Program-made: the position numbers and the translations under genes
Shown here: piece after piece, positions 44,356 to 54,454 of the stretch
Layout: every line of letters starts with the position of its first letter
Numbering within the stretch: position 1 is the stretch's first letter
From: Longispora fulva
GTDB lineage: Bacteria; Actinomycetota; Actinomycetes; Mycobacteriales; Micromonosporaceae
DNA length: 64,000 nucleotides
Direction of reading: 5' to 3'
Assembly: GCF_015751905.1 (NCBI RefSeq)
Contig: NZ_JADOUF010000001.1
Location: 5,890,001 to 5,954,000 of the forward strand
Notes under the pieces: generated by a model
Seen by the model: only the letters and a program-made list of their open reading frames with translations
Databases searched by the model: none
What the model was told of the DNA's origin: nothing

Positions 44356-44496
44356 GTTGCCTCTCGGAGTGCGCGTTACACACTCAACGGGCAAAACCGG
44401 GCCGAGGTGACGGAGCGGGTCCGCACGGTGACCGGCGCGACTACGATCACTGAGGTACCCATTCGTCACCCCTCGTCATGAGATCAGGTGTCAGCG

Positions 44497-46035
44497 ATGG
44501 CGACAGAACCACAGGCCACCGTGAGTGGCAGCCATGTCCAGCAGGGCCGGCACCCCGGGATCGCCCTGGCGGTGATCACCTCGGCGCAGCTGATGATCGT
44601 CCTCGACGCGACGATCGTGAACATCGCGTTGCCGCAGATCCAGCGGGCACTCGGCTTCTCGTCGACCGACCTGTCGTGGGTGCTCAACGCGTACACCCTG
44701 ACGTTCGGTGGTCTGCTGCTCCTCGGCGGCCGGGCCGGCGACATCCTCGGCCGGCGGCGGGTCTTCATCTTCGGCATCCTGCTGTTCACCCTCGCCTCGC
44801 TGCTCGGCGGTCTCGCCCAGTCGGCGGAGTGGCTGCTGCTCGCCCGCGCCCTGCAGGGCATCGGCGGAGCGATCGCCTCGCCCACGGCCCTCTCGCTGAT
44901 CACCACGAACTTCGACGAGGGCCCCGAACGCAACCGGGCCTTCGGCGTGTTCGCGGCGGTCTCCGGGGCAGGGGCCGCGATCGGGCTGATCGCCGGAGGC
45001 ATGCTGACCTCCTGGCTGTCGTGGCGGTGGACGCTGTTCGTGAACGTGCCGATCGGGATCGCGCTGGCGCTGCTGGCCCCGCGGTACATCAAGGAGTCCG
45101 AGCGGCACCCCGGACGGTTCGACGTCGCCGGCGCGATCGCCTCCACAGCCGGCATGTCACTGCTGGTGTACGGCTTCATCCGCGCCGCGGACAAGGGCTG
45201 GAGCGACACCGGCACGATCGTGTCGTTCGTGGCCGCCGCGGTGCTGCTGGCCGGTTTCGTCCTGATCGAGCGGCGCAGCGCCCAGCCGATCACGCCGCTG
45301 CACCTGTTCCGGGACCGCGACCGGGTCGGCACGTACGTGGTCATGCTGATCACCGCCGCCGCGATGTTCGGGATGTTCTTCTTCCTCACGCTGTTCGTGC
45401 AGAACGTCCTCGGCTACTCGCCGCTGCGGGCCGGCTTCGCCTTCGTGCCGGTGACCGTGGCGATCGGGGTCACCGCGCAGCTCGCGTCCCGGATCATCCC
45501 GAGGACCGGCCCGAAGATCCTGCTGATGATCGGCGGGGCGCTCGCGGCCACCGGACTGATCTGGCTGTCCCGGATCTCGGAGAGCAGCCAGTACGTCACC
45601 GGCCTGCTGCTGCCGATGTGCATCTTCGGGCTCGGGATGGGCTTCATCTTCGTCCCCGTCACGATCGTCGCCCTGGCCCGGGTGGCCAACAAGGACTCGG
45701 GCGCGGCGTCCGGGATGCTGAACGCGATGCAGATGGTCGGCGGCTCCCTCGGGCTGTCCGTGCTGGTCACCGTGTTCGGCACGGCCAGCCGCAACGAGGC
45801 GGCGATCCAGGTCAAGCGGTTCCTCGCCCAGGCGTCCCCGGAGCAGCTCGCGCTGTTCCAGAAGACCCAACAGCTGCCGAAGCCGTTCTCCAGCCACGTC
45901 CTCGCGCACGGCATCTCCTCGGCGTTCCAGCTCGCGGCACTGCTGGCCGTGGTGGCGCTGGTGGTGACCACGGTGGTGATCCGCCGCAAGGTGGCGGGCG
46001 AGGAAGCCGGCACGGCGGCGCAACCGATGCCGTAG
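44497..46035 (+). CDS. MFS drug exporter, DHA2 (EmrB/QacA) family
   Basis: This 512-aa protein has fourteen predicted helices. DHA2 signatures seen are MIVLDATIVNIALPQIQRAL in helix one (motif D1), GGRAGDILGRRR (motif A) and RALQGIGGA (motif B). The C-terminal tail is basic. Proton-driven export of lipophilic drugs or of a metabolite is expected. It might serve the biosynthetic cluster starting 2.3 kb downstream, but three unrelated genes intervene. GTG at 44488 is an alternative start. Confidence 0.93.
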   Translation: MATEPQATVSGSHVQQGRHPGIALAVITSAQLMIVLDATIVNIALPQIQRALGFSSTDLSWVLNAYTLTFGGLLLLGGRAGDILGRRRVFIFGILLFTLASLLGGLAQSAEWLLLARALQGIGGAIASPTALSLITTNFDEGPERNRAFGVFAAVSGAGAAIGLIAGGMLTSWLSWRWTLFVNVPIGIALALLAPRYIKESERHPGRFDVAGAIASTAGMSLLVYGFIRAADKGWSDTGTIVSFVAAAVLLAGFVLIERRSAQPITPLHLFRDRDRVGTYVVMLITAAAMFGMFFFLTLFVQNVLGYSPLRAGFAFVPVTVAIGVTAQLASRIIPRTGPKILLMIGGALAATGLIWLSRISESSQYVTGLLLPMCIFGLGMGFIFVPVTIVALARVANKDSGAASGMLNAMQMVGGSLGLSVLVTVFGTASRNEAAIQVKRFLAQASPEQLALFQKTQQLPKPFSSHVLAHGISSAFQLAALLAVVALVVTTVVIRRKVAGEEAGTAAQPMP

Positions 46036-46154: not shown

Positions 46155-46970
46155 TCACAGCGTGGCCAGGGTTTCCACGAGCGTGGCGGCCACGGCGCGC
46201 TGGCCGGCCAGGGACAGGTGCAGGCCGTCGTCGAGGTGCCGGTCCGGGTCGGTGACCGTCCGCGTGTCGACCGTGGGCTCGGGGCGCTGGCGGAGCAGGT
46301 CGCCGATCGCGGTCAGATCCTCGTTGGCCCAGGTCAGTCCGGCCCGCTGGAAGTGGGGGTAGGCGGCGACCCTGGCCTCGTCGGCCAGGGTCGGGGTCAG
46401 CCACACCCAGCGCGCCCCCGTCCGGTGTCCGGCGAGGTCGCGGAGGGCCGTGAGGTTGCGGTCCGTCTCGGTCAGGCTCACCAGGGTCGGGCCGGTGGGC
46501 GAGCCGAGGCGTTGGGCGTCGTTGCCGCCGAGCATGCACAGGATCCAGTCCGGCGCGTGGTGCGGCAGGGCCGGGAGCAGGGTCAGGGCCTGGGTGCTGC
46601 TGTGGCCCGACACCGCCAGGTTCACGCAGGTGATGTCGTCCGCCGGGCGGCGCAGGGCGAGTAGGTGGCGCAGGATCTCGAACCAGGACAGCAGGTCGTC
46701 GGTGGTGCTCTCACCGATCGCCACGATCCGCTGGCCCGGCTCGAAGGGGAGCTTGTCGACCTTCGCCGCGAACTCATCGTCATCGAGCAGGTCCCGGGCC
46801 GCAGCCTGGGCGCGCTCGGCGAGGCCGGTCCGGAGCTGCTGATATGCGGCAACGTCCAGGCCGTACAGCGCCGCGAGTCGTTCGTCGTCGACCCCGCCGA
46901 GATAGCCCAGCGTCTTCTCCGGGTGCTGGAACCGGACGAGCCTTTCCGTCATTTCCGGGTGCATGTTCAT
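46155..46970 (-). CDS. SGNH/GDSL hydrolase
   Basis: This 271-aa cytoplasmic hydrolase has an N-terminal helical region (residues 1-80) before the SGNH core: block I VAIGESTTDD (Ser as nucleophile), a Gly block near NLAVSGHSST, block III GGNDAQ and block V DDGLHLSLAG (Asp and His). No signal peptide. It is encoded 6 bp downstream of the DUF4386-like gene and probably co-transcribed. The substrate (ester or acyl group) is unknown. Confidence 0.85.
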   Translation of the reverse strand: MNMHPEMTERLVRFQHPEKTLGYLGGVDDERLAALYGLDVAAYQQLRTGLAERAQAAARDLLDDDEFAAKVDKLPFEPGQRIVAIGESTTDDLLSWFEILRHLLALRRPADDITCVNLAVSGHSSTQALTLLPALPHHAPDWILCMLGGNDAQRLGSPTGPTLVSLTETDRNLTALRDLAGHRTGARWVWLTPTLADEARVAAYPHFQRAGLTWANEDLTAIGDLLRQRPEPTVDTRTVTDPDRHLDDGLHLSLAGQRAVAATLVETLATL

Positions 46971-47801: not shown

Positions 47802-48263
47802 ATGAGCACCCCACCGCAGCCCGGAGCGGCCTTCCTGCTCGCCCAGGTGGGGGCGCACGCCGCCGCCCGGTTCGCCGAGCGGATCAGCGAGGTCGGGGTC
47901 GACCCGCCCGACGTCGGGCTGCTGCGCATGATCGCCAGCCAGCCGGGCCGCAGCCAGCAGTCCCTCGCGGAGCAGCTCGGAGTGGTGCCGAGCCGGGTCG
48001 TCGTCCTCGTCGACGGGCTGCAACGCCGTGGCCTGGTCGAACGGCGGCGCAACCCGCAGGACCGCCGCAACCACGCACTGCACCTCACCGCGGAGGCCGA
48101 ACAGGTCATGACGCGGATCCGGGAGCTGGCGTCCACACACGAGAGCGACATCTGCGCGGCGTTGGACGACCACCAGCGGGCGCAGCTCACCGAGCTTCTC
48201 GGGGCGATCGCGGCCCAGCAGGGCCTCACCCCCGGCGTGCACCCGGGATACCGACGCCCTTAG
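47802..48263 (+). CDS. MarR-family transcriptional regulator
   Basis: This 153-aa protein has a winged helix-turn-helix (QPGRSQQSLAEQLGVVPSRVVVLVDGLQRRGLVERRRNPQDRRNHALHLT), with the MarR wing RNPQDRRNHALHL and flanking dimerisation helices. It is divergent from the DUF4386-like/SGNH pair and sits 90 bp upstream of the oleA-like gene in the same direction, so it could also influence the biosynthetic cluster by read-through. The ligand is unknown. Confidence 0.9.
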   Translation: MSTPPQPGAAFLLAQVGAHAAARFAERISEVGVDPPDVGLLRMIASQPGRSQQSLAEQLGVVPSRVVVLVDGLQRRGLVERRRNPQDRRNHALHLTAEAEQVMTRIRELASTHESDICAALDDHQRAQLTELLGAIAAQQGLTPGVHPGYRRP

Positions 48264-48352: not shown

Positions 48353-49342
48353 ATGGGTGCTCGGATCACTGGGCTGGCGGTGCATCTGCCGGAGGCCAGG
48401 TTGACCAGCCGTGAGGTGACGGAACGGATCACCGGGTACCGGCCGCCGGCCGGCCTCGTCGAGCGGCTGACCGGTGTGGAGTCGTTGCGCGTGATGCCCG
48501 ACGACTGGCAGGCGTCCGACCTGGCCGCTGAGGCCGCGCGCAAGCTGTTCGCCGACACGGGCACCGATCCCGGCGACGTGGACCTGTTGCTGTTCGCGTC
48601 GGCGAGCCAGGACATGGTGGAGCCGGCGACCGCGCACATCGTCGCCGCGAAACTGGGCCTGAGCTGCCCGGTGTTCGACGTGAAGAACGCGTGCAACAGC
48701 GTGCTCAACGCGATCGAGGTGGCCGACGCGCTGATCGGGGCCGGGGGGTACCGGCGGGTGCTGATCGCCAGCGGGGAGGCGCCGTCGCGGGCCGTGCGGT
48801 GGGACGTGCCGGACCTGAAGGCGTACCTGGAGGCGTTGCCGGGGTACACGTTGTCGGACGCCGGGGCCGCGCTCGTCATGGAGCGCTCCGACCGGCCAGG
48901 GGTGCTCGGGTCCGGGTTCTCCGCGCACTCCGGGGCCTGGCGGGTCGGGACGCTGCCGGCCGGGGGGTCGGCGCATCCGAGGGACCCGGAGTACAGCTAC
49001 TTCCGGATGGACGGGGCGGCGCTGAAGGAGGCGTTCGACTCGTTCGGGGCCGAGGTCGTGGTGGACACGCTCGCGCGGCTCGGGCTGGGGTGGGACGACT
49101 TCGCCGTGGTCGCCGTGCACCAGGTGTCGCTGCCGTACCTGGAGATCCTGCGGGAGCGGCTGGGGATTCCGGCCGACAAGCTGGTCGTCACGCTCGCCGA
49201 GCATGGGAACCTGGCGTCGGCCAGTCTGCCGTTCCAGCTGGTCAGGGCGCGGGAGGCTGGCAGGCTGGGGCCGGGGGACCTGGCCTGCCTGATCGGGTTG
49301 GCCGGCGGTGTGAGCATGGGCGTGATGGCGGTGGAGCTGTGA
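48353..49342 (+). CDS. OleA-like 3-oxoacyl-ACP synthase III family thiolase
   Basis: This 329-aa thiolase-fold enzyme has the KASIII-type triad Cys114 (KNACNSVLNA), His256 (AVHQVSLPYL) and Asn286 (EHGNLASASL). The active-site motif differs from FabH (AACSGF), and the gene starts an operon with OleC- and OleD-like genes. Together this points to an OleA-type head-to-head Claisen condensation of two acyl thioesters. A plain beta-ketoacyl synthase role is the alternative. ATG with GGGAGG 6 nt upstream. The stop overlaps the glycosyltransferase start (GTGA). Confidence 0.85.
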   Translation: MGARITGLAVHLPEARLTSREVTERITGYRPPAGLVERLTGVESLRVMPDDWQASDLAAEAARKLFADTGTDPGDVDLLLFASASQDMVEPATAHIVAAKLGLSCPVFDVKNACNSVLNAIEVADALIGAGGYRRVLIASGEAPSRAVRWDVPDLKAYLEALPGYTLSDAGAALVMERSDRPGVLGSGFSAHSGAWRVGTLPAGGSAHPRDPEYSYFRMDGAALKEAFDSFGAEVVVDTLARLGLGWDDFAVVAVHQVSLPYLEILRERLGIPADKLVVTLAEHGNLASASLPFQLVRAREAGRLGPGDLACLIGLAGGVSMGVMAVEL

Positions 49343-50079
49343 GTCTCTTTGTTGTGGTCCCGGCCTACAACGAGGCCCGGGGGATCCTGCCGACGTTGCA
49401 TGCCCTGGCCGCGCAGGTCGACCGGGACTTCACCCTGGTCGTGGTCGACAACAACTCCACCGACGGCACGGCGGCCATCGTGCGCGCCTTCGACTTCCCC
49501 GGCGGGCACCTGATCCACGAGCCGGTCAAGGGCACGGGGGCCGCGGCGGACACCGGGATGCGGTACGCGATCGCGCACGGCGCGACCCTGCTCGCACGGA
49601 CCGACGCGGACTGCCTGCCCGCCCCGGACTGGACGGCGTCGGTCCGCCGGTGCTTCGCGGAAGGGCTCGGGCTCGTCGGCGGGCAGCTGACCCCAAGAAC
49701 CGACGACGTACCGGTGAGCGCGTGGCGGCGGGGGCTGCTGCTCGCGGCCGTCGAGGTCGCCGTCGTGTTCGGCAGGCTGCGCAAGGGCAACCGGGGGCCG
49801 GAGTACCTGGGGCCGTACATCATGGCGCCGGGGTGCAACATGGCCATCACCGCCGACCTGTACGAACGGGCCGGCGGCTTCCCCCGCACCAGGATCGAGG
49901 ACCTGCACGAGGACCGGGCCCTGGTCAACGCGGTGCGCAGGCTGACGACGGCGTACGCGTACCGGCGCGACGTCCGGGTGAGCGGCTCCGTCCGGCGCGC
50001 GCACGCGTGGGGGCTGCGGCGGACCCTGGCGTGGTACGCCGACCACCGCTACCGGCCAGAGATCGTGGACATCCGGTGA
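49339..50079 (+). CDS. GT2-family glycosyltransferase
   Basis: This 246-aa inverting GT-A enzyme starts LFVVVPAYNEARGILPTL. It has VVVDNNSTDGTAAIV, the DxD-like metal motif RTDADCLP and GCNMAITADLYERAGGFPRTRIEDLHEDRAL, where the ED motif supplies the base. No membrane helices are clear. Within a coupled five-gene operon it should add a sugar to the lipid product or to a hydroxyl made by the P450. The donor is unknown. Confidence 0.88.
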   Translation: MSLFVVVPAYNEARGILPTLHALAAQVDRDFTLVVVDNNSTDGTAAIVRAFDFPGGHLIHEPVKGTGAAADTGMRYAIAHGATLLARTDADCLPAPDWTASVRRCFAEGLGLVGGQLTPRTDDVPVSAWRRGLLLAAVEVAVVFGRLRKGNRGPEYLGPYIMAPGCNMAITADLYERAGGFPRTRIEDLHEDRALVNAVRRLTTAYAYRRDVRVSGSVRRAHAWGLRRTLAWYADHRYRPEIVDIR

Positions 50080-51200
50080 CCGCCTGGGAGGAGCGGGTGC
50101 AGACGGGGGCGCATCCCGTGGCGTACCGGATGATGCGGTTGATCGCGAACAGCGGGCCGGTGCGCCGGGTCCCCCGGGTCGGGGTGGTCGTCAGCGACCC
50201 GGTCCTGGCCCGGGGGGTGTTGATGGACTCCGACACGTTCACGAAGACCGGGCCCGGCTCGCCGGCCGATCTGTGGACGCCGGTCCTCGGCCCGTCGGTG
50301 CTGCTCAACATGGAGGGCGACGCGCACTCCCGGCTGCGGCGCAAGCTGTCCGGGCTGTTCACGCCGGGGTATGTCCGCGACCTGTGCGAGCGGGTGCTGA
50401 CTCTTCCGCTGGCGCACCTGCGCGAGGACCTGGCCGCCGGCCGCGAGGTCGACCTAGTCCAGGTCGTGCGGGACTGCGCGGGCGCCGTGATCTGCGAACT
50501 CGTCGGCCTGCCCGCCGACCGGGTCGCCGAGGCCTACGCCCGGGGCACCGCCATCACCTCCATGGTCAGGCTCGGCCGGCCCCGGCTCACCGACCGGCAG
50601 ATCCGGCACGCCCGCACCGAACTCGGCGGCCTCACCGAGCCGGCGATCCGGGCGTACCGGTCCGGGGATCCGGCCACCGTGCCCGGCAGGATGCGCGAAC
50701 TCGGCCTGACCGAGGAGGAGGCGCACGGCGCGGTCGGGGCTTTCGTCCTGACGGGTACCGAGACCCTGGTGTCCTATCTGCCCCGGCTCGTCGCGCTGTG
50801 CCACGACACGGGAGTGTCGATCACCGAGTCCAATCTGGACAGTGTTGTGGCCGAGGGGCTGCGGTACACCGTGCCGTCGCCCGTGATGCTGCGCAGCGTC
50901 GTGCGGGACGGGTCCGTCGGCGGAGTCGCCGTCCGGGCCGGGGACCGGGTCGTGATCGCCACACTGTTCTGCGCGCGGGGCCGCTCCCCGTTCGACCCGT
51001 CACAGCCGGCCGACCCCGACGTGCGCCAGCTCTGGTTCGGGGCCGGCACGCACTTCTGCCTCGGCGCGCCGCTGGCCAGAGCGGAGATCGACGGGGTGCT
51101 CCGCGCGCTGATGGCGGGGCGGGTCGAGATCACGTCCCGGACCGTGGCCCGCCGGGTGCTCATTCCCGGGTACTCCCGACTCATGATCCGGAGCGTGTGA
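50076..51200 (+). CDS. Cytochrome P450
   Basis: This 374-aa soluble bacterial P450 has heme-ligand Cys328 in LWFGAGTHFCLGAPLA, the ExxR motif (EGLRY) and an I-helix VLTGTETLVSY, where the acid-alcohol pair is Glu-Thr. It is slightly shorter than typical CYPs (around 400) because of a short N-terminus. GTGA overlap with the glycosyltransferase and TGATG with the ligase gene show strict operon translation. It probably hydroxylates or epoxidises the acyl chain of the product. A redox partner is not encoded here. Confidence 0.93.
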   Translation: MTAWEERVQTGAHPVAYRMMRLIANSGPVRRVPRVGVVVSDPVLARGVLMDSDTFTKTGPGSPADLWTPVLGPSVLLNMEGDAHSRLRRKLSGLFTPGYVRDLCERVLTLPLAHLREDLAAGREVDLVQVVRDCAGAVICELVGLPADRVAEAYARGTAITSMVRLGRPRLTDRQIRHARTELGGLTEPAIRAYRSGDPATVPGRMRELGLTEEEAHGAVGAFVLTGTETLVSYLPRLVALCHDTGVSITESNLDSVVAEGLRYTVPSPVMLRSVVRDGSVGGVAVRAGDRVVIATLFCARGRSPFDPSQPADPDVRQLWFGAGTHFCLGAPLARAEIDGVLRALMAGRVEITSRTVARRVLIPGYSRLMIRSV

Positions 51201-52816
51201 TGGACCTGGTGGCGGCGGTGCTGTCGACCGCGGACGCCTCGCCCGACGCGCTGGCGATCGGGGAGATGACGTACGGCGAGCTGGCGCGGAGGGTGCGGTG
51301 CACCGCGGCCGGGTTGCTCGACGCCGGGCTGGAGCCCGGTGACCGGGTGCTGTTCTCCGTCCGGCCCGAGGCGGCCGGGGTGGTGCTCGCGTTAGGGATC
51401 GTCGCGGCCGGCGGGACCGTCGTGTTCGCCGATCCGGGGACCGGACCGGAGCTGTTCGCCGCCCGGCTGGCGCTCGCCGGGCCGACGTGGGCGGCGGCCG
51501 AGTCGCTGCTGTACGCCACCAGTCGGTACGGGCGGGGGCTGGCGCGGCGGCGGGGGCTGCTGTTGCCGTCGTACCGGGAGTTGCCGGTGCGTCACGTGTA
51601 CGCGGGGCGGTGGCTGCCGGGGGTGCCCGGTGGTGCGTTGTCGGCCCGGAGGCTGGCTTCCACGCCGTCGATCACGGCCGGAGGCGCGGCGCGCGGCGGG
51701 TCGGGGGTCGCGGGCCATGCCGGATCGGGCGTCGCGGGGCGCTCCGGGGTCGCGCACCTCGCCGATCAGGAAGCGCTCGTCGTGTTCACCTCCGGCAGCA
51801 CCGCCGCGCCCAAGGCCGTCGTGCACACCCGCGGCTCCCTGGGCGCAGGCCTCCAGCTCCTGGCCACCCGCTGCCGGATCGGCCCCGGCGACACCGTGCA
51901 CACCGACCAGCTCATGCTCGGCCTGCCGGCCCTCGTCGCCGGCGCGCACTGGACGATGCCGCCGTACGGGTTCGCCCCCGGGGCCGATCCGGCCCGGTAC
52001 GCCGCCGGACTCCGTGGCGCGACGCACGCGTTCTGTGTCCCGGCCGACCTCGCGGTCCTCCTCGACGCGGGGATCACCGCCCCCGGGCTCCGCCACCTGC
52101 TGGTCGGCGGGGCACCGGTCCTACCGCCCCTGCTCCGCCGGGCCCGGGCGGCGCTCGGCGGCACCGAGATCCTCGCCGTGTACGGCATGACCGAGATCCT
52201 GCCGATCGCCATCGCCACCGCTGAGGAGAAGCTGGCCCACACCGGGCCGGGCGACCTGATCGGCGAGCCCCTTCCCGGGGTACTGGTCACCATCGCGCCC
52301 GACGGCGAGCTGTCGGTGTCAGGGCCGAACCTGTGCCGGGGGTACCTCGGGGAGGCCCCGCTGGACAGCCACGCGACGGGTGACCTGGCGGCCATCGACG
52401 ACGGCCGGCTCGTGTTGCTCGGCCGCAAGAAGGACATGATCATCCGCCGGAAGACCAATGTGTACCCGGGCCTGTACGAGCCGGCGATCAGCACGCTGCC
52501 GGGGGTGCGCGAGGCCGCGCTGGTGGGGGTGCCCGACGAGATCGGCGACGAACGGATCGTCCTGGCGGTGGTGCCGGACCTTGTCCGGGAGCCGGGGCAC
52601 GACGGGCGTCCCGGAAGGACCGGCGGCCCGGGCGACGGGCACGAACTCGTGGCCGAACTGCGGGCGAGGCTGCCGCATGTCATCGACGCTTCCGCGCTGC
52701 CCGACGAGATCGTGCCGGTCGCGGCGATCCCGACGGTCGGCCGGACCCGCAAGCCCGACCGCGAGGCGTTGCGGCGACTGGTGACCGGGGACCGGGCCGA
52801 GGCGGGGAAGCCGTGA
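51200..52816 (+). CDS. OleC-like adenylate-forming enzyme (ANL superfamily)
   Basis: In this 538-aa protein AMP-binding motifs are VFTSGSTAAPKAVVHT (about 195-210), YGMTEILPIA (328-337), TGDLAAIDDGRLVLLGRKKDM (393-413) and the C-terminal catalytic Lys518 (GRTRKPDRE). YG-x-TE-x-LP recalls OleC, which uses ATP to close beta-hydroxy acids to beta-lactones. An acyl-CoA or acyl-AMP ligase is the alternative. A low-complexity Gly/Ala/Ser insert (about 150-188) and a second one near 465-480 are unusual. A TTA codon encodes Leu65 (51392-51394), suggesting bldA control. Confidence 0.82.
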   Translation: MDLVAAVLSTADASPDALAIGEMTYGELARRVRCTAAGLLDAGLEPGDRVLFSVRPEAAGVVLALGIVAAGGTVVFADPGTGPELFAARLALAGPTWAAAESLLYATSRYGRGLARRRGLLLPSYRELPVRHVYAGRWLPGVPGGALSARRLASTPSITAGGAARGGSGVAGHAGSGVAGRSGVAHLADQEALVVFTSGSTAAPKAVVHTRGSLGAGLQLLATRCRIGPGDTVHTDQLMLGLPALVAGAHWTMPPYGFAPGADPARYAAGLRGATHAFCVPADLAVLLDAGITAPGLRHLLVGGAPVLPPLLRRARAALGGTEILAVYGMTEILPIAIATAEEKLAHTGPGDLIGEPLPGVLVTIAPDGELSVSGPNLCRGYLGEAPLDSHATGDLAAIDDGRLVLLGRKKDMIIRRKTNVYPGLYEPAISTLPGVREAALVGVPDEIGDERIVLAVVPDLVREPGHDGRPGRTGGPGDGHELVAELRARLPHVIDASALPDEIVPVAAIPTVGRTRKPDREALRRLVTGDRAEAGKP

Positions 52817-52880
52817 CCGGGCCGGGCCGGGGTGTGCGTGTGCGGGGTGCCTGGGCAGGGACTATTTCGAGGGGTGTCTG

Positions 52881-53765
52881 GTGCGGATCGCGGTGACCGG
52901 GGCTGGCGGGTTCGTGGGCGGGGCCGTGTGTCGGGGGCTCGTCGCCGACGGGCACCGCGTCGTGCCCCTCACCCGGCGGGAGTGGGACATCACCACCGGC
53001 CCGATGACCGACCCGCCGGAGGTCGACGCGGTCGTGCACTGCGCCGCGGCCGTCACCGACTGGGGACCTCTCGAACCGGTCCGCCGGGCCAACGTCGACG
53101 GCACCCGGCACGTGCTGGCCACTTTCCGGACCGCCCGGTTCGTGCACGTCTCCACGGCCAGCGTCTACGACCCGTTCCGCCCCACGGTGCGCGCCGTCGA
53201 GGCGGAGGCGCCCGTGGGCCGCTACCTCACCGGGTACGCCGCGACCAAGGCCGCCGCCGAGCAGCTCGTCCTGCACCGCCCGGACGCCGTCGTCCTCCGC
53301 CCGCACGCCGTGTACGGCCCCGGCGACCCCACCCTGCTCCCCCGGGTACTCGGCGCGATCCGGGGCCGCACGCTGTGGATCGTCGGGGACGGCCGGGCGG
53401 CCCAGTCGCTCACGTCCGTGGCGAACCTGGTCCGGGCCGTCGGGTTGGCGTGCGCCGGGGGCCCCGGGGGCGCGTACAACATCGCGGACGCCGAGCCGGT
53501 CGAGGTCGGGGCGGCGTTGCGGGACCTGTTGGCGGCCCGGGGGCTGGCGGTCCGGGTCCGTGGGCTGCCGATCGGGGTGGCGTGGCCGGTCGCCGGGGCC
53601 CTGGAACGGGGGTTCCGACTGGCGGGTACGCGCCGCCCACCCCGCCTGACCAGGTACGCGATCAGCCACCTCGCGATGGAACGCACCCTGGACCTGACCA
53701 GGGCGACCACGCTGCTCGGTTACGCCCCGACCCCGACGTCCTTCGCCGGCGCGGCCGACTGGTGA
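52881..53765 (+). CDS. OleD-like NAD(P)-dependent reductase/epimerase (extended SDR)
   Basis: This 294-aa protein has the Rossmann motif TGAGGFVGGAV, HVSTASVYD, catalytic Tyr119/Lys123 (GYAATKAAAE), and LRPHAVYGPGDPTLLPRVL. The last segment and the C-terminal PRLTRYAISHLAMERTLD, followed by LLGYAPTP, are the hallmark of the 3-beta-HSD/OleD branch. OleD reduces the beta-keto acid from OleA to a beta-hydroxy acid, the OleC substrate. GTG start, 64 bp after the ligase gene; same strand and operon direction. Confidence 0.85.
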   Translation: MRIAVTGAGGFVGGAVCRGLVADGHRVVPLTRREWDITTGPMTDPPEVDAVVHCAAAVTDWGPLEPVRRANVDGTRHVLATFRTARFVHVSTASVYDPFRPTVRAVEAEAPVGRYLTGYAATKAAAEQLVLHRPDAVVLRPHAVYGPGDPTLLPRVLGAIRGRTLWIVGDGRAAQSLTSVANLVRAVGLACAGGPGGAYNIADAEPVEVGAALRDLLAARGLAVRVRGLPIGVAWPVAGALERGFRLAGTRRPPRLTRYAISHLAMERTLDLTRATTLLGYAPTPTSFAGAADW

Positions 53766-53788: not shown

Positions 53789-54454
53789 ATGATCACGAAC
53801 CCGGACGCGGTCACCGTCCTCTGCTACGGCGACTCCAACACGCAGGGCGAACGCCCCAGCGACTACGACCTGGGCCGCTGGCCCGCCGACGTGCGCTGGA
53901 CCGGCCAGCTGCAGGACCTCCTGGGCGACGGCTTCTCCGTCATCGAGGAGGGCCTGGGCGGCCGGACCACCGACGTGGACTACGCCGATCGGGTGGGGAA
54001 GAACGGCCGCACCTACCTGCGCCCGTGCCTGGACACGCACACGCCGCTCGACATCGTCGTGCTGATGCTCGGCACCAATGACCTGAAGATCGTGTTCGAC
54101 CGGTCGGCCGACCAGATCGCCGCCGCGGTGGGCGGGTTGTTGGACGACATCGAGACGTACGGGGTCGGCCGGGCCGGGCCGCCGAAGGTCATCCTGCTGT
54201 CCCCCGCCCCCGTGGACGACACGAAGCCGGGGTACTACGCCGACGAGATCCCGAGGTACGACACCGCCTCGGTGGCGAAGTCACGGGAACTGGCCGACCG
54301 GCTGCGGGCGCTCGCGGAGAAGCGGGGGCACCTGTTCGCCGACATCGGCATCGTGGCCGAGGTGGGCGACGACGGCGTGCACCTCACCCGGGACTCGCAC
54401 AGCGCCGTGGCCGCGCTGGTGGCGGCACGCATCTCCGACGCTCTGGCCCGCTGA
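53789..54454 (+). CDS. SGNH/GDSL hydrolase
   Basis: This 221-aa arylesterase-like hydrolase has block I CYGDSNTQGERP (Ser16), GLGGRTTD, GTNDLK and DGVHLTRDSH (catalytic Asp/His). No signal peptide, so it acts in the cytoplasm. It begins 23 bp after the oleD-like gene and may be the last gene of the biosynthetic operon, for example cleaving a thioester or lactone. It is not related to OleB, which is an alpha/beta-hydrolase. The substrate is unknown. Confidence 0.9.
   Translation: MITNPDAVTVLCYGDSNTQGERPSDYDLGRWPADVRWTGQLQDLLGDGFSVIEEGLGGRTTDVDYADRVGKNGRTYLRPCLDTHTPLDIVVLMLGTNDLKIVFDRSADQIAAAVGGLLDDIETYGVGRAGPPKVILLSPAPVDDTKPGYYADEIPRYDTASVAKSRELADRLRALAEKRGHLFADIGIVAEVGDDGVHLTRDSHSAVAALVAARISDALAR

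What the first reader, a model, noticed from the sequence alone, without database searches (positions are those of the whole stretch)
48353..53765. OleA-GT2-P450-OleC-OleD operon without OleB: candidate new beta-lactone or hydroxylated lipid pathway
Five genes with start/stop overlaps encode an OleA-like thiolase (Cys114/His256/Asn286), glycosyltransferase, P450 (Cys328), OleC-like ANL enzyme (YGMTEILP) and OleD-like reductase. In OleABCD the OleC product is a beta-lactone that OleB decarboxylates to an olefin; OleB is absent here. Lipstatin and nocardiolactone pathways are known examples that keep the lactone. The added P450 and glycosyltransferase suggest an oxidised, glycosylated product. 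The first two sentences are what I see and what is known of the family; the product is inference.
Basis: partly seen in the sequence, partly recalled or inferred. Interest (0 to 1): 0.85.

Follow-up and report, generated by a model that had tools for sequence, protein, structure and literature searches.

The report
OleB-less OleA-glycosyltransferase-P450-OleC-OleD gene cluster

Summary
The five genes are real, at the stated coordinates, with the stated residues; three of four junctions overlap, the last is a 64-nt gap. The ANL protein groups with 13 OleC rows against 28 ordinary ANL rows (99/96), though it fails curated OleC cut-offs and BLAST cannot tell. The thiolase keeps the OleA-type Glu, absent from two FabHs and the three other KASIII proteins found in the genome. 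No OleB and no over-cut-off OleC was found in the genome.

Order OleA-GT2-P450-OleC-OleD recurs in 48 of 69 related loci (one counted twice); GT2 is the most conserved in 46 of 48. It is rare: 14 of 200 same-family genomes, own included. A second, related P450 flanks 27 of the 48 but was not found in this genome.

The kind is not new: PMC7064751 describes the same five domains without oleB in Actinoplanes atraurantiacus and proposes a hydroxylated, glycosylated beta-lactone. That remains the likeliest product; none is known. New here: the family's extent, its OleC affinity, the second P450, and an ANL keeping the ligase hinge that OleC lost.

The parts
48353..49342 (+). OleA-like thiolase (KASIII fold); E90, C114, H256, N286
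49339..50079 (+). GT2 glycosyltransferase, predicted soluble GT-A fold, DxD at 89-91; the most conserved member of the unit
50076..51200 (+). cytochrome P450; heme Cys328, ExxR E260/R263, I-helix GTET 227-230
51200..52816 (+). OleC-like ANL (adenylate-forming) enzyme, two-domain fold; A3, A5, A8 hinge and A10 Lys518 present
52881..53765 (+). OleD-like SDR reductase; GxxGxxG, Ser91, Tyr119, Lys123
52817..52880 (+). 64-nt gap between ANL and OleD genes, GAGGGG ahead of the OleD GTG start

Best explanation
The unit most likely makes a glycosylated, hydroxylated dialkyl beta-lactone. OleA joins two acyl-CoAs head to head to a 2-alkyl-3-keto acid; the OleD-like SDR reduces it to the 3-hydroxy acid; the ANL enzyme adenylates the carboxylate and the 3-hydroxyl closes the four-membered ring; the P450 hydroxylates an alkyl chain; GT2 puts a sugar on that hydroxyl (if it took the 3-hydroxyl, the ring could not close). 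Without OleB the lactone is not decarboxylated. Shown here: the genes, their residues, the OleA and OleC affinities, no OleB found. Inferred: every reaction, their order, the sugar and the chains. Relatives with a second P450 probably add a second oxidation; this genome lacks that gene. My odds: OleA/OleD chemistry about 0.85, glycosylation 0.75, retained lactone 0.6.
For: Tree: family plus 13 OleC rows against 28 ordinary ANL rows, 99/96. Residues between the conserved Pro and the A10 Lys: 6 in five-gene 53/53, Nocardia 14/14 and Bacteroidota-type 13/13 rows; 7 in OleC 13/13; 5 in 27/27 'other' ligases and 12 of 13 countable own-genome rows. Leu two places after YGxTE: five-gene 44/53, OleC 12/13, 'other' ligases 0/27, own-genome 1/14. 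The A8-loop glycine is absent in 48 of 53 five-gene and 13 of 13 OleC rows, present in 26 of 27 and 10 of 14 ligases (one of the 14 gapped). The OleA Glu is in 52/52 five-gene and 4/4 comparison OleA rows, and not in the 3 other own-genome KASIII or 2 FabHs. A Saccharothrix OleA inside the window's OleA clade (100/100) sits in an oleB-oleC-oleA-oleD-like run. No OleB at E<=1e-10 in the own genome. The OleA of a same-type cluster was active (PMC7064751, passages).
Against: Curated cut-offs are missed: OleC models 84.5 of 900 and 148.7 of 478 bits, OleD 144.2 of 580. A protein that the first tree puts among ordinary ligases (L096) scores 184.7 with NF006754, and BLAST of the ANL against four OleC loci (58-106 bits) overlaps that against ordinary ligases (60-92). 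Nine of the 13 OleC rows are themselves below the NF006754 cut-off (332-380 bits). The ANL keeps Lys411/Asp412 of the A8 hinge, as ligases do (Asp 25 of 27), and OleC has lost it (Asp 0 of 13). Five of 53 five-gene rows keep the A8 glycine, four of them from Lentzea/Saccharothrix. GT2 gives no clue to donor or acceptor. No metabolite is known.
Confidence: 0.5

Rival explanations
1. The product is a glycolipid of a 2-alkyl-3-hydroxy (mycolate-like) acid without a lactone: the ANL enzyme activates the acid as acyl-AMP or CoA ester for transfer to another acceptor, and GT2 glycosylates the 3-hydroxyl or a P450-made hydroxyl.
For: The ANL keeps the GRKKD hinge that OleC lost and a complete two-domain fold; its nearest solved folds include amide bond synthetases and aryl-adenylating enzymes. 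GT2 is the best conserved gene (46 of 48), so the sugar may matter more than the ring. A PapA-type acyltransferase lies downstream of the Nocardia version (L018).
Against: Tree and A10 spacing place the ANL with OleC; the A8 glycine is absent in 48 of 53. Apart from the second P450, 0 of 2473 ORFs of 60 aa or more within 6 kb of 47 units and the window's match in three or more other lineages and 5 match in two (these 5 were not identified), so no transferase or carrier gene is a constant companion.
Confidence: 0.25
2. The lactone is a transient intermediate that the P450, or an unlinked hydrolase, opens or decarboxylates, so the end product is an oxidised olefin, diol or ketone.
For: The P450 is invariant in the heme Cys and ExxR (53 of 53); the genome has many alpha/beta hydrolases (70 Abhydrolase_1 matches).
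Against: No OleB at E<=1e-10; GT2 would have no obvious role; two genomes that also hold an oleBC fusion keep the five-gene unit as a separate locus (G202, G207).
Confidence: 0.08
3. The ANL is an ordinary acyl-CoA ligase and the cluster a diverged fatty-acid operon.
For: Below all OleC cut-offs; GRKKD hinge; BLAST scores overlap those of ligases.
Against: Tree 99/96 against 28 diverse ANL rows; A10 spacing unlike 27 of 27 'other' ligases; constant company of OleA and OleD.
Confidence: 0.07

Closest known systems
Actinoplanes atraurantiacus OleA-GT-OleC-P450-OleD region (PMC7064751, Fig. 6 legend and section 11 read)
   Same: Same five protein domains, no oleB in the genome, family Micromonosporaceae; its OleA was active with p-nitrophenyl esters (passages); the same product idea.
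   Different: Listed as OleA, GT, OleC, P450, OleD; here P450 precedes OleC. Its sequence was not fetched, so identity to the window is not measured.
Nocardiolactone cluster (gene names nltABCD recalled; JBC paper not held; passages of PMC7413640; comparator L122 in Nocardia coubleae)
   Same: KASIII, OleC and OleD homologues; beta-lactone kept.
   Different: L122 is KASIII + degenerate KASIII + OleC over cut-off (605 bits) + OleD, with no GT2 match in its 4.6-kb core L092; the window has one KASIII, GT2 and P450, and an ANL from a sister clade of OleC. That L122 is the nocardiolactone cluster is my inference.
Lipstatin cluster (lst; recalled, and passages of PMC7064751)
   Same: OleA/OleC/OleD homologues, no OleB, beta-lactone kept.
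   Different: LstA/LstB heterodimer, and (recalled) an NRPS and a formyltransferase; here one KASIII, with GT2 and P450.
oleABCD / oleBC-fusion olefin pathway
   Same: OleA, OleC-like and OleD-like enzymes.
   Different: No OleB found; ANL below OleC cut-offs and with the A8 hinge intact.

Membership tests
OleABCD olefin pathway | OleB beta-lactone decarboxylase, separate or fused to OleC | tested here: not met
   OleB query cut from the Paenarthrobacter fusion: 0 matches at E<=1e-10 in G000 (45 candidates scored), while it finds the Cellulosimicrobium fusion at 60% and a Saccharothrix OleB at 41%
OleA thiolase | Cys/His/Asn and the OleA-specific Glu (Glu117 in Xanthomonas OleA, by my count of the alignment) | tested here: met
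   E90, C114, H256, N286; aligned to 3row; 52 of 52 five-gene rows keep E
OleA thiolase | Non-decarboxylative condensation of two acyl-CoAs | not testable with these tools
   Needs an assay; for the A. atraurantiacus OleA I saw reported activity with p-nitrophenyl esters only
OleC beta-lactone synthetase | Curated OleC models over cut-off | tested here: not met
   NF045786 84.5 of 900; NF006754 148.7 of 478
OleC beta-lactone synthetase | Phylogenetic grouping with OleC and not with ordinary ligases | tested here: met
   With 13 OleC rows (4 over the NF006754 cut-off, 9 below it) at 99/96 against 28 ANL rows; 62 rows in all
OleC beta-lactone synthetase | Degenerate A8 hinge (no GRxKD), as in the 13 OleC rows | tested here: not met
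   K411/D412 kept in the window; D412 53 of 53 five-gene, 0 of 13 OleC
OleC beta-lactone synthetase | Forms a beta-lactone from a 3-hydroxy acid and ATP | not testable with these tools
   Needs an assay
OleD reductase | NF042422 over cut-off | tested here: not met
   Best model, but 144.2 of 580 bits; Ser/Tyr/Lys present
A. atraurantiacus-type oleACD + GT + P450 cluster | Same five protein families together and no oleB in the genome | tested here: met
   against PMC7064751 section 11
A. atraurantiacus-type oleACD + GT + P450 cluster | Same gene order (A-GT-C-P450-D) | tested here: not met
   Window is A-GT2-P450-C-D; of 69 loci 48 have the window's order and 1 (L082) the printed one
Lipstatin/nocardiolactone type | Two-subunit KASIII (LstA/LstB) | tested here: not met
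   One KASIII with complete triad; the other three PF08541 matches of the genome lie over 800 kb away; no second KASIII among the flanking ORFs scanned

The most novel reading that the evidence does not exclude
The family is a distinct, uncharacterised class of glycosylated beta-lactones made by a mobile five-gene cassette (with a second P450 in many lineages) found across Actinomycetota and in a Gemmatimonadota MAG, and its ANL enzyme is a beta-lactone synthetase of an intermediate kind that still has the domain-alternation hinge of acyl-CoA ligases, so that it records how a ligase became a lactone synthetase.
Probability: 0.3. Interest if true: 0.62.

Novelty: new member of a known kind. Interest (0 to 1): 0.4.

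Why it matters
Some beta-lactones are enzyme inhibitors with drug use (lipstatin). A compact cassette that recurs in many actinomycetes, including named Streptomyces species, and whose best conserved gene is a glycosyltransferase, points to a compound class whose structure I did not find in my library searches (long lists were shown only in part). The ANL enzyme is a natural test case for what separates a CoA ligase from a beta-lactone synthetase.

Tried and rejected
Curated family scores as a test of OleC identity: uninformative, since ligase-like proteins reach higher NF006754 scores than the window ANL. BLAST: also uninformative. A quick first tree left the place of OleC open, so 14 own-genome ANL rows and 9 more OleC rows were added. 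Fold searches of GT2 (WrtF fucosyltransferase first, PcManGT at 26% identity) and of the ANL do not fix donor, acceptor or reaction. No PDB chain matches the Nocardia OleC (L122) at E<=1e-30. P450 relatives by sequence gave no substrate hint.

A mistake of mine, mended: from a single-linkage clustering I had concluded that no neighbour gene recurs beside the unit across lineages. A stricter rerun shows one that does, the second P450. The flanking MarR, two GDSL hydrolases and MFS gene of the window have no match beside the other 47 units, so I leave them out of the unit. The Nocardia clusters were first taken for the nocardiolactone cluster; rejected because N. coubleae has both a KASIII-KASIII-OleC-OleD locus (L122) and the GT2/ANL cluster (L018).

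Rows left out before counts: L053, L056 and L070 (broken or partial ANL) are not among the 53 five-gene rows, though L053 is among the 48 for order; L049 and L131 are the same place and both are counted, so 48 of 69 is 47 of 68 distinct loci. L015 has no OleA on its contig, hence 52 OleA rows. L075 is not in the 12 Bacteroidota-type OleA rows; with it the Glu is in 11 of 13. The 27 'other' ligases include one from the own genome (L099).
Full report
What is there. Five genes lie on the + strand at 48353-53765: a KASIII/thiolase-fold protein, a GT2 glycosyltransferase, a P450, an adenylate-forming (ANL) enzyme and an SDR reductase. The first three junctions overlap by 4, 4 and 1 nt; the OleD-like gene starts 64 nt after the ANL stop with a GAGGGG before its GTG. 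The window is part of an 8.68-Mb single-contig genome. One 'same family' genome, G061, has a contig of the same length (130,866) holding the ANL at the same place as Hamadaea tsunoensis locus L049, so I infer that the family is Micromonosporaceae.

Is the thiolase an OleA? The PDB alignment puts Glu of VEPATA (E90) against the Glu of EPSTAS in Xanthomonas OleA (3row); by my count from the catalytic Cys, recalled as C143, this is Glu117, named in the title of a 2017 paper as key to condensation (title seen in the reference list of PMC7064751; the paper is not held). Two FabHs have Phe there. The Glu is in 52 of 52 five-gene rows, 13 of 13 Nocardia rows, 11 of 12 Bacteroidota-type rows and 4 of 4 OleA rows from OleC-bearing comparison loci, and in none of the three other KASIII of this genome (Met, Cys, Thr). 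Four of the 13 Nocardia rows lack the Cys; I take them to be the degenerate second KASIII of that cluster. In a careful tree of 32 rows the window OleA lies in a clade (100/100) with eight five-gene OleAs and the OleA of Saccharothrix locus L123. That gene lies between an OleC over the cut-off (541 bits) and an OleD-like match, with an OleB match upstream of the OleC. The tree warns of long branches (L170, L062, and a join of Nocardia with oleBC-type OleAs), none next to the window.

Is the ANL protein an OleC? By curated models it is not (84.5 of 900 and 148.7 of 478 bits), and BLAST scores do not separate OleC from ligases. The careful tree of 62 rows does: the window, 20 family rows and 13 OleC rows stand against 28 ordinary ANL rows, 14 fetched from the own genome and 14 others, one of which (L099) is also from the own genome (99/96). 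Of the 13 OleC rows, four pass the NF006754 cut-off and nine score 332-380 bits; two of the nine (L124, L125) are shown to be OleB fusions. This is a clade if the root lies among the 28, which is my assumption. Alignment columns agree in part: the Pro-to-Lys spacing of the A10 loop is 5 residues in ordinary ligases (27 of 27; 12 of 13 countable own-genome rows), 6 in the family (53, 14 and 13 of as many) and 7 in OleC (13 of 13). The A8 glycine that I recall as lining the pantetheine tunnel of acyl-CoA ligases is present in 26 of 27 and 10 of 14 ligases (1 gap), 5 of 53 five-gene, 0 of 14 Nocardia, 2 of 13 Bacteroidota-type and 0 of 13 OleC rows. The hinge is a difference: Asp412 is kept in 53 of 53 five-gene rows, but OleC has His or Gln (13 of 13). 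So I read the enzyme as a sister of OleC with a ligase-like hinge. The AlphaFold model is a confident two-domain ANL (pLDDT 87.8); fold neighbours do not decide the reaction.

Is OleB missing? A query cut from the OleB half of a Paenarthrobacter oleBC fusion found nothing at E<=1e-10 in this genome, among 45 scored candidates. In the same search 5 of 16 genomes matched: two oleBC fusions (G202, G207), an OleB next to OleC (G209), and weaker matches in G211 and G214 (28-40% identity). None of these lies in a five-gene unit, judged from contig lengths and positions. No match in the own genome passes the NF006754 cut-off.

How widespread? Of 69 loci tested for order (60 from that scan, one plasmid, eight same-family loci), 48 have A-GT2-P450-C-D on one strand, one of them counted twice. 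They come from Streptomyces, Pseudonocardiaceae, Arthrobacter and Paenarthrobacter, Cellulosimicrobium and Oerskovia, Microbacteriaceae, a Propionibacterium MAG, Micromonosporaceae and a Gemmatimonadaceae MAG; a Roseisolibacter contig (L070, also Gemmatimonadota by my knowledge) holds the ANL and OleD end. Others: A-C-GT2-P450-D (3), A-GT2-C-P450-D (1, S. viridifaciens plasmid pKVP2), A-P450-C-GT2-D (1, Thermoleophilia MAG), Nocardia forms (14), fragments (2). It is rare: 14 of 200 same-family genomes, own included, have the ANL at E<=1e-60; the one other genome of the genus does not; 3 of 396 phylum genomes, own included, have the GT2 at E<=1e-60 (the rows show six candidates scored per genome). 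Mean identities to the window over the 48 loci: GT2 67.1, OleA 60.8, OleD 55.9, P450 55.6, ANL 54.0; GT2 leads in 46 of 48.

A second P450. In 27 of the 48 loci (26 of 47 distinct) a P450 of about 390-475 aa, about 35% identical to the unit's own, lies beside the unit: 9 Streptomyces, 2 Saccharopolyspora, 4 Microbacteriaceae-type (one an unplaced Actinomycetota MAG), 6 Cellulosimicrobium-type and 5 distinct Micromonosporaceae loci. The other 21 (12 Arthrobacter-type, 7 Lentzea/Saccharothrix/Pseudonocardia, L045, L060) match only with the unit's P450. In 10 of 14 Nocardia loci the divergent P450 is of this second kind (42-47%). The own genome has none: its best match is the unit's P450 (35%), the next a 52-bit P450 fragment match elsewhere. 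Of five copies scanned, all five have 'P450-derived glycosyltransferase activator' (TIGR04515) as best NCBIfam model, far below its cut-off (43-77 of 343 bits); the copy printed keeps heme Cys and ExxR, so I read it as an oxygenase. Apart from it, 0 of 2473 flanking ORFs match in three or more other lineages and 5 match in two.

Transfer. The window's OleA, GT2, P450 and ANL are nearer to Streptomyces and Pseudonocardiaceae copies than to the Hamadaea and G051 copies of its own family, those family copies have the second P450 and the window does not, and the spread is patchy. This suggests horizontal transfer; it was not tested further.

What does it do? The best reading is the one printed for A. 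atraurantiacus in PMC7064751: condensation, reduction, ring closure, chain hydroxylation, glycosylation (section 11). My results support the first three by affinity and by the OleB not found, and show that GT2 and a P450 are constant parts of the unit. The A. atraurantiacus OleA was active and 29% identical to Xanthomonas OleA, while E. coli FabH (27%) was not active (passages). The GT2 model is a confident soluble GT-A protein (pLDDT 91.2); D91 and D192 are in 53 of 53 five-gene rows; donor and acceptor are unknown. Papers: PMC7064751 section 11 and passages; PMC7158056 passages, with no occurrence of 'glycosyl' or 'P450'; PMC7413640 and PMC11837247 passages; all others as search listings. 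Among the titles listed I saw no other paper on such a cluster, but one search listed 12 of 46 papers and most subscription papers are not held, so absence from print is not shown.

Verdict. Interest lies in a conserved, uncharacterised cassette and in a hinge-bearing sister of OleC.

Noticed in passing
L017, L018 and 12 further Nocardia loci: A second OleC-like Nocardia cluster: KASIII, a 288-aa degenerate KASIII, a ~120-aa protein without Pfam match, sometimes OleD, then GT2 (65-70% to the window) and ANL (49-54%), in 10 of 14 loci with a divergent P450 of the second kind and, in L018, a PapA-type acyltransferase downstream; in N. coubleae it stands apart from a KASIII-KASIII-OleC-OleD locus (L122).
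   Followed up: partly
L002:3846-5018 (+) and 26 further five-gene loci: A second P450, about 35% identical to the unit's own, beside the unit in 27 of 48 loci; not found in the window's genome.
   Followed up: partly
L062-L069, L071-L075: Contigs labelled Bacteroidota, Hydrogenedentota or Paceibacterota with OleA and ANL relatives, mostly with OleD, and no GT2 or P450 match; an AurF-like diiron oxygenase gene lies beside the run in L062 and L065.
   Followed up: partly
L123 (G209, Saccharothrix): An oleB-oleC-oleA-oleD-like run whose OleA falls in the five-gene OleA clade, although the same genome also has the five-gene unit (L008).
   Followed up: partly
L082 / L174, plasmid pKVP2 of Streptomyces viridifaciens: The five genes on a linear plasmid, with another P450, a ferredoxin and an FAD oxidoreductase nearby.
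   Followed up: no
window 44488-46035, 46155-46970, 47802-48263, 53789-54454: MFS transporter, GDSL hydrolase, MarR regulator and a second GDSL hydrolase flank the unit here; no match beside the other 47 units compared.
   Followed up: partly
L009, L010, L013, L014 (Lentzea/Saccharothrix): These ANL copies have Gly at the A8 position where most of the family has Lys, Arg, Thr or Ser; possible functional shift or reversion.
   Followed up: no
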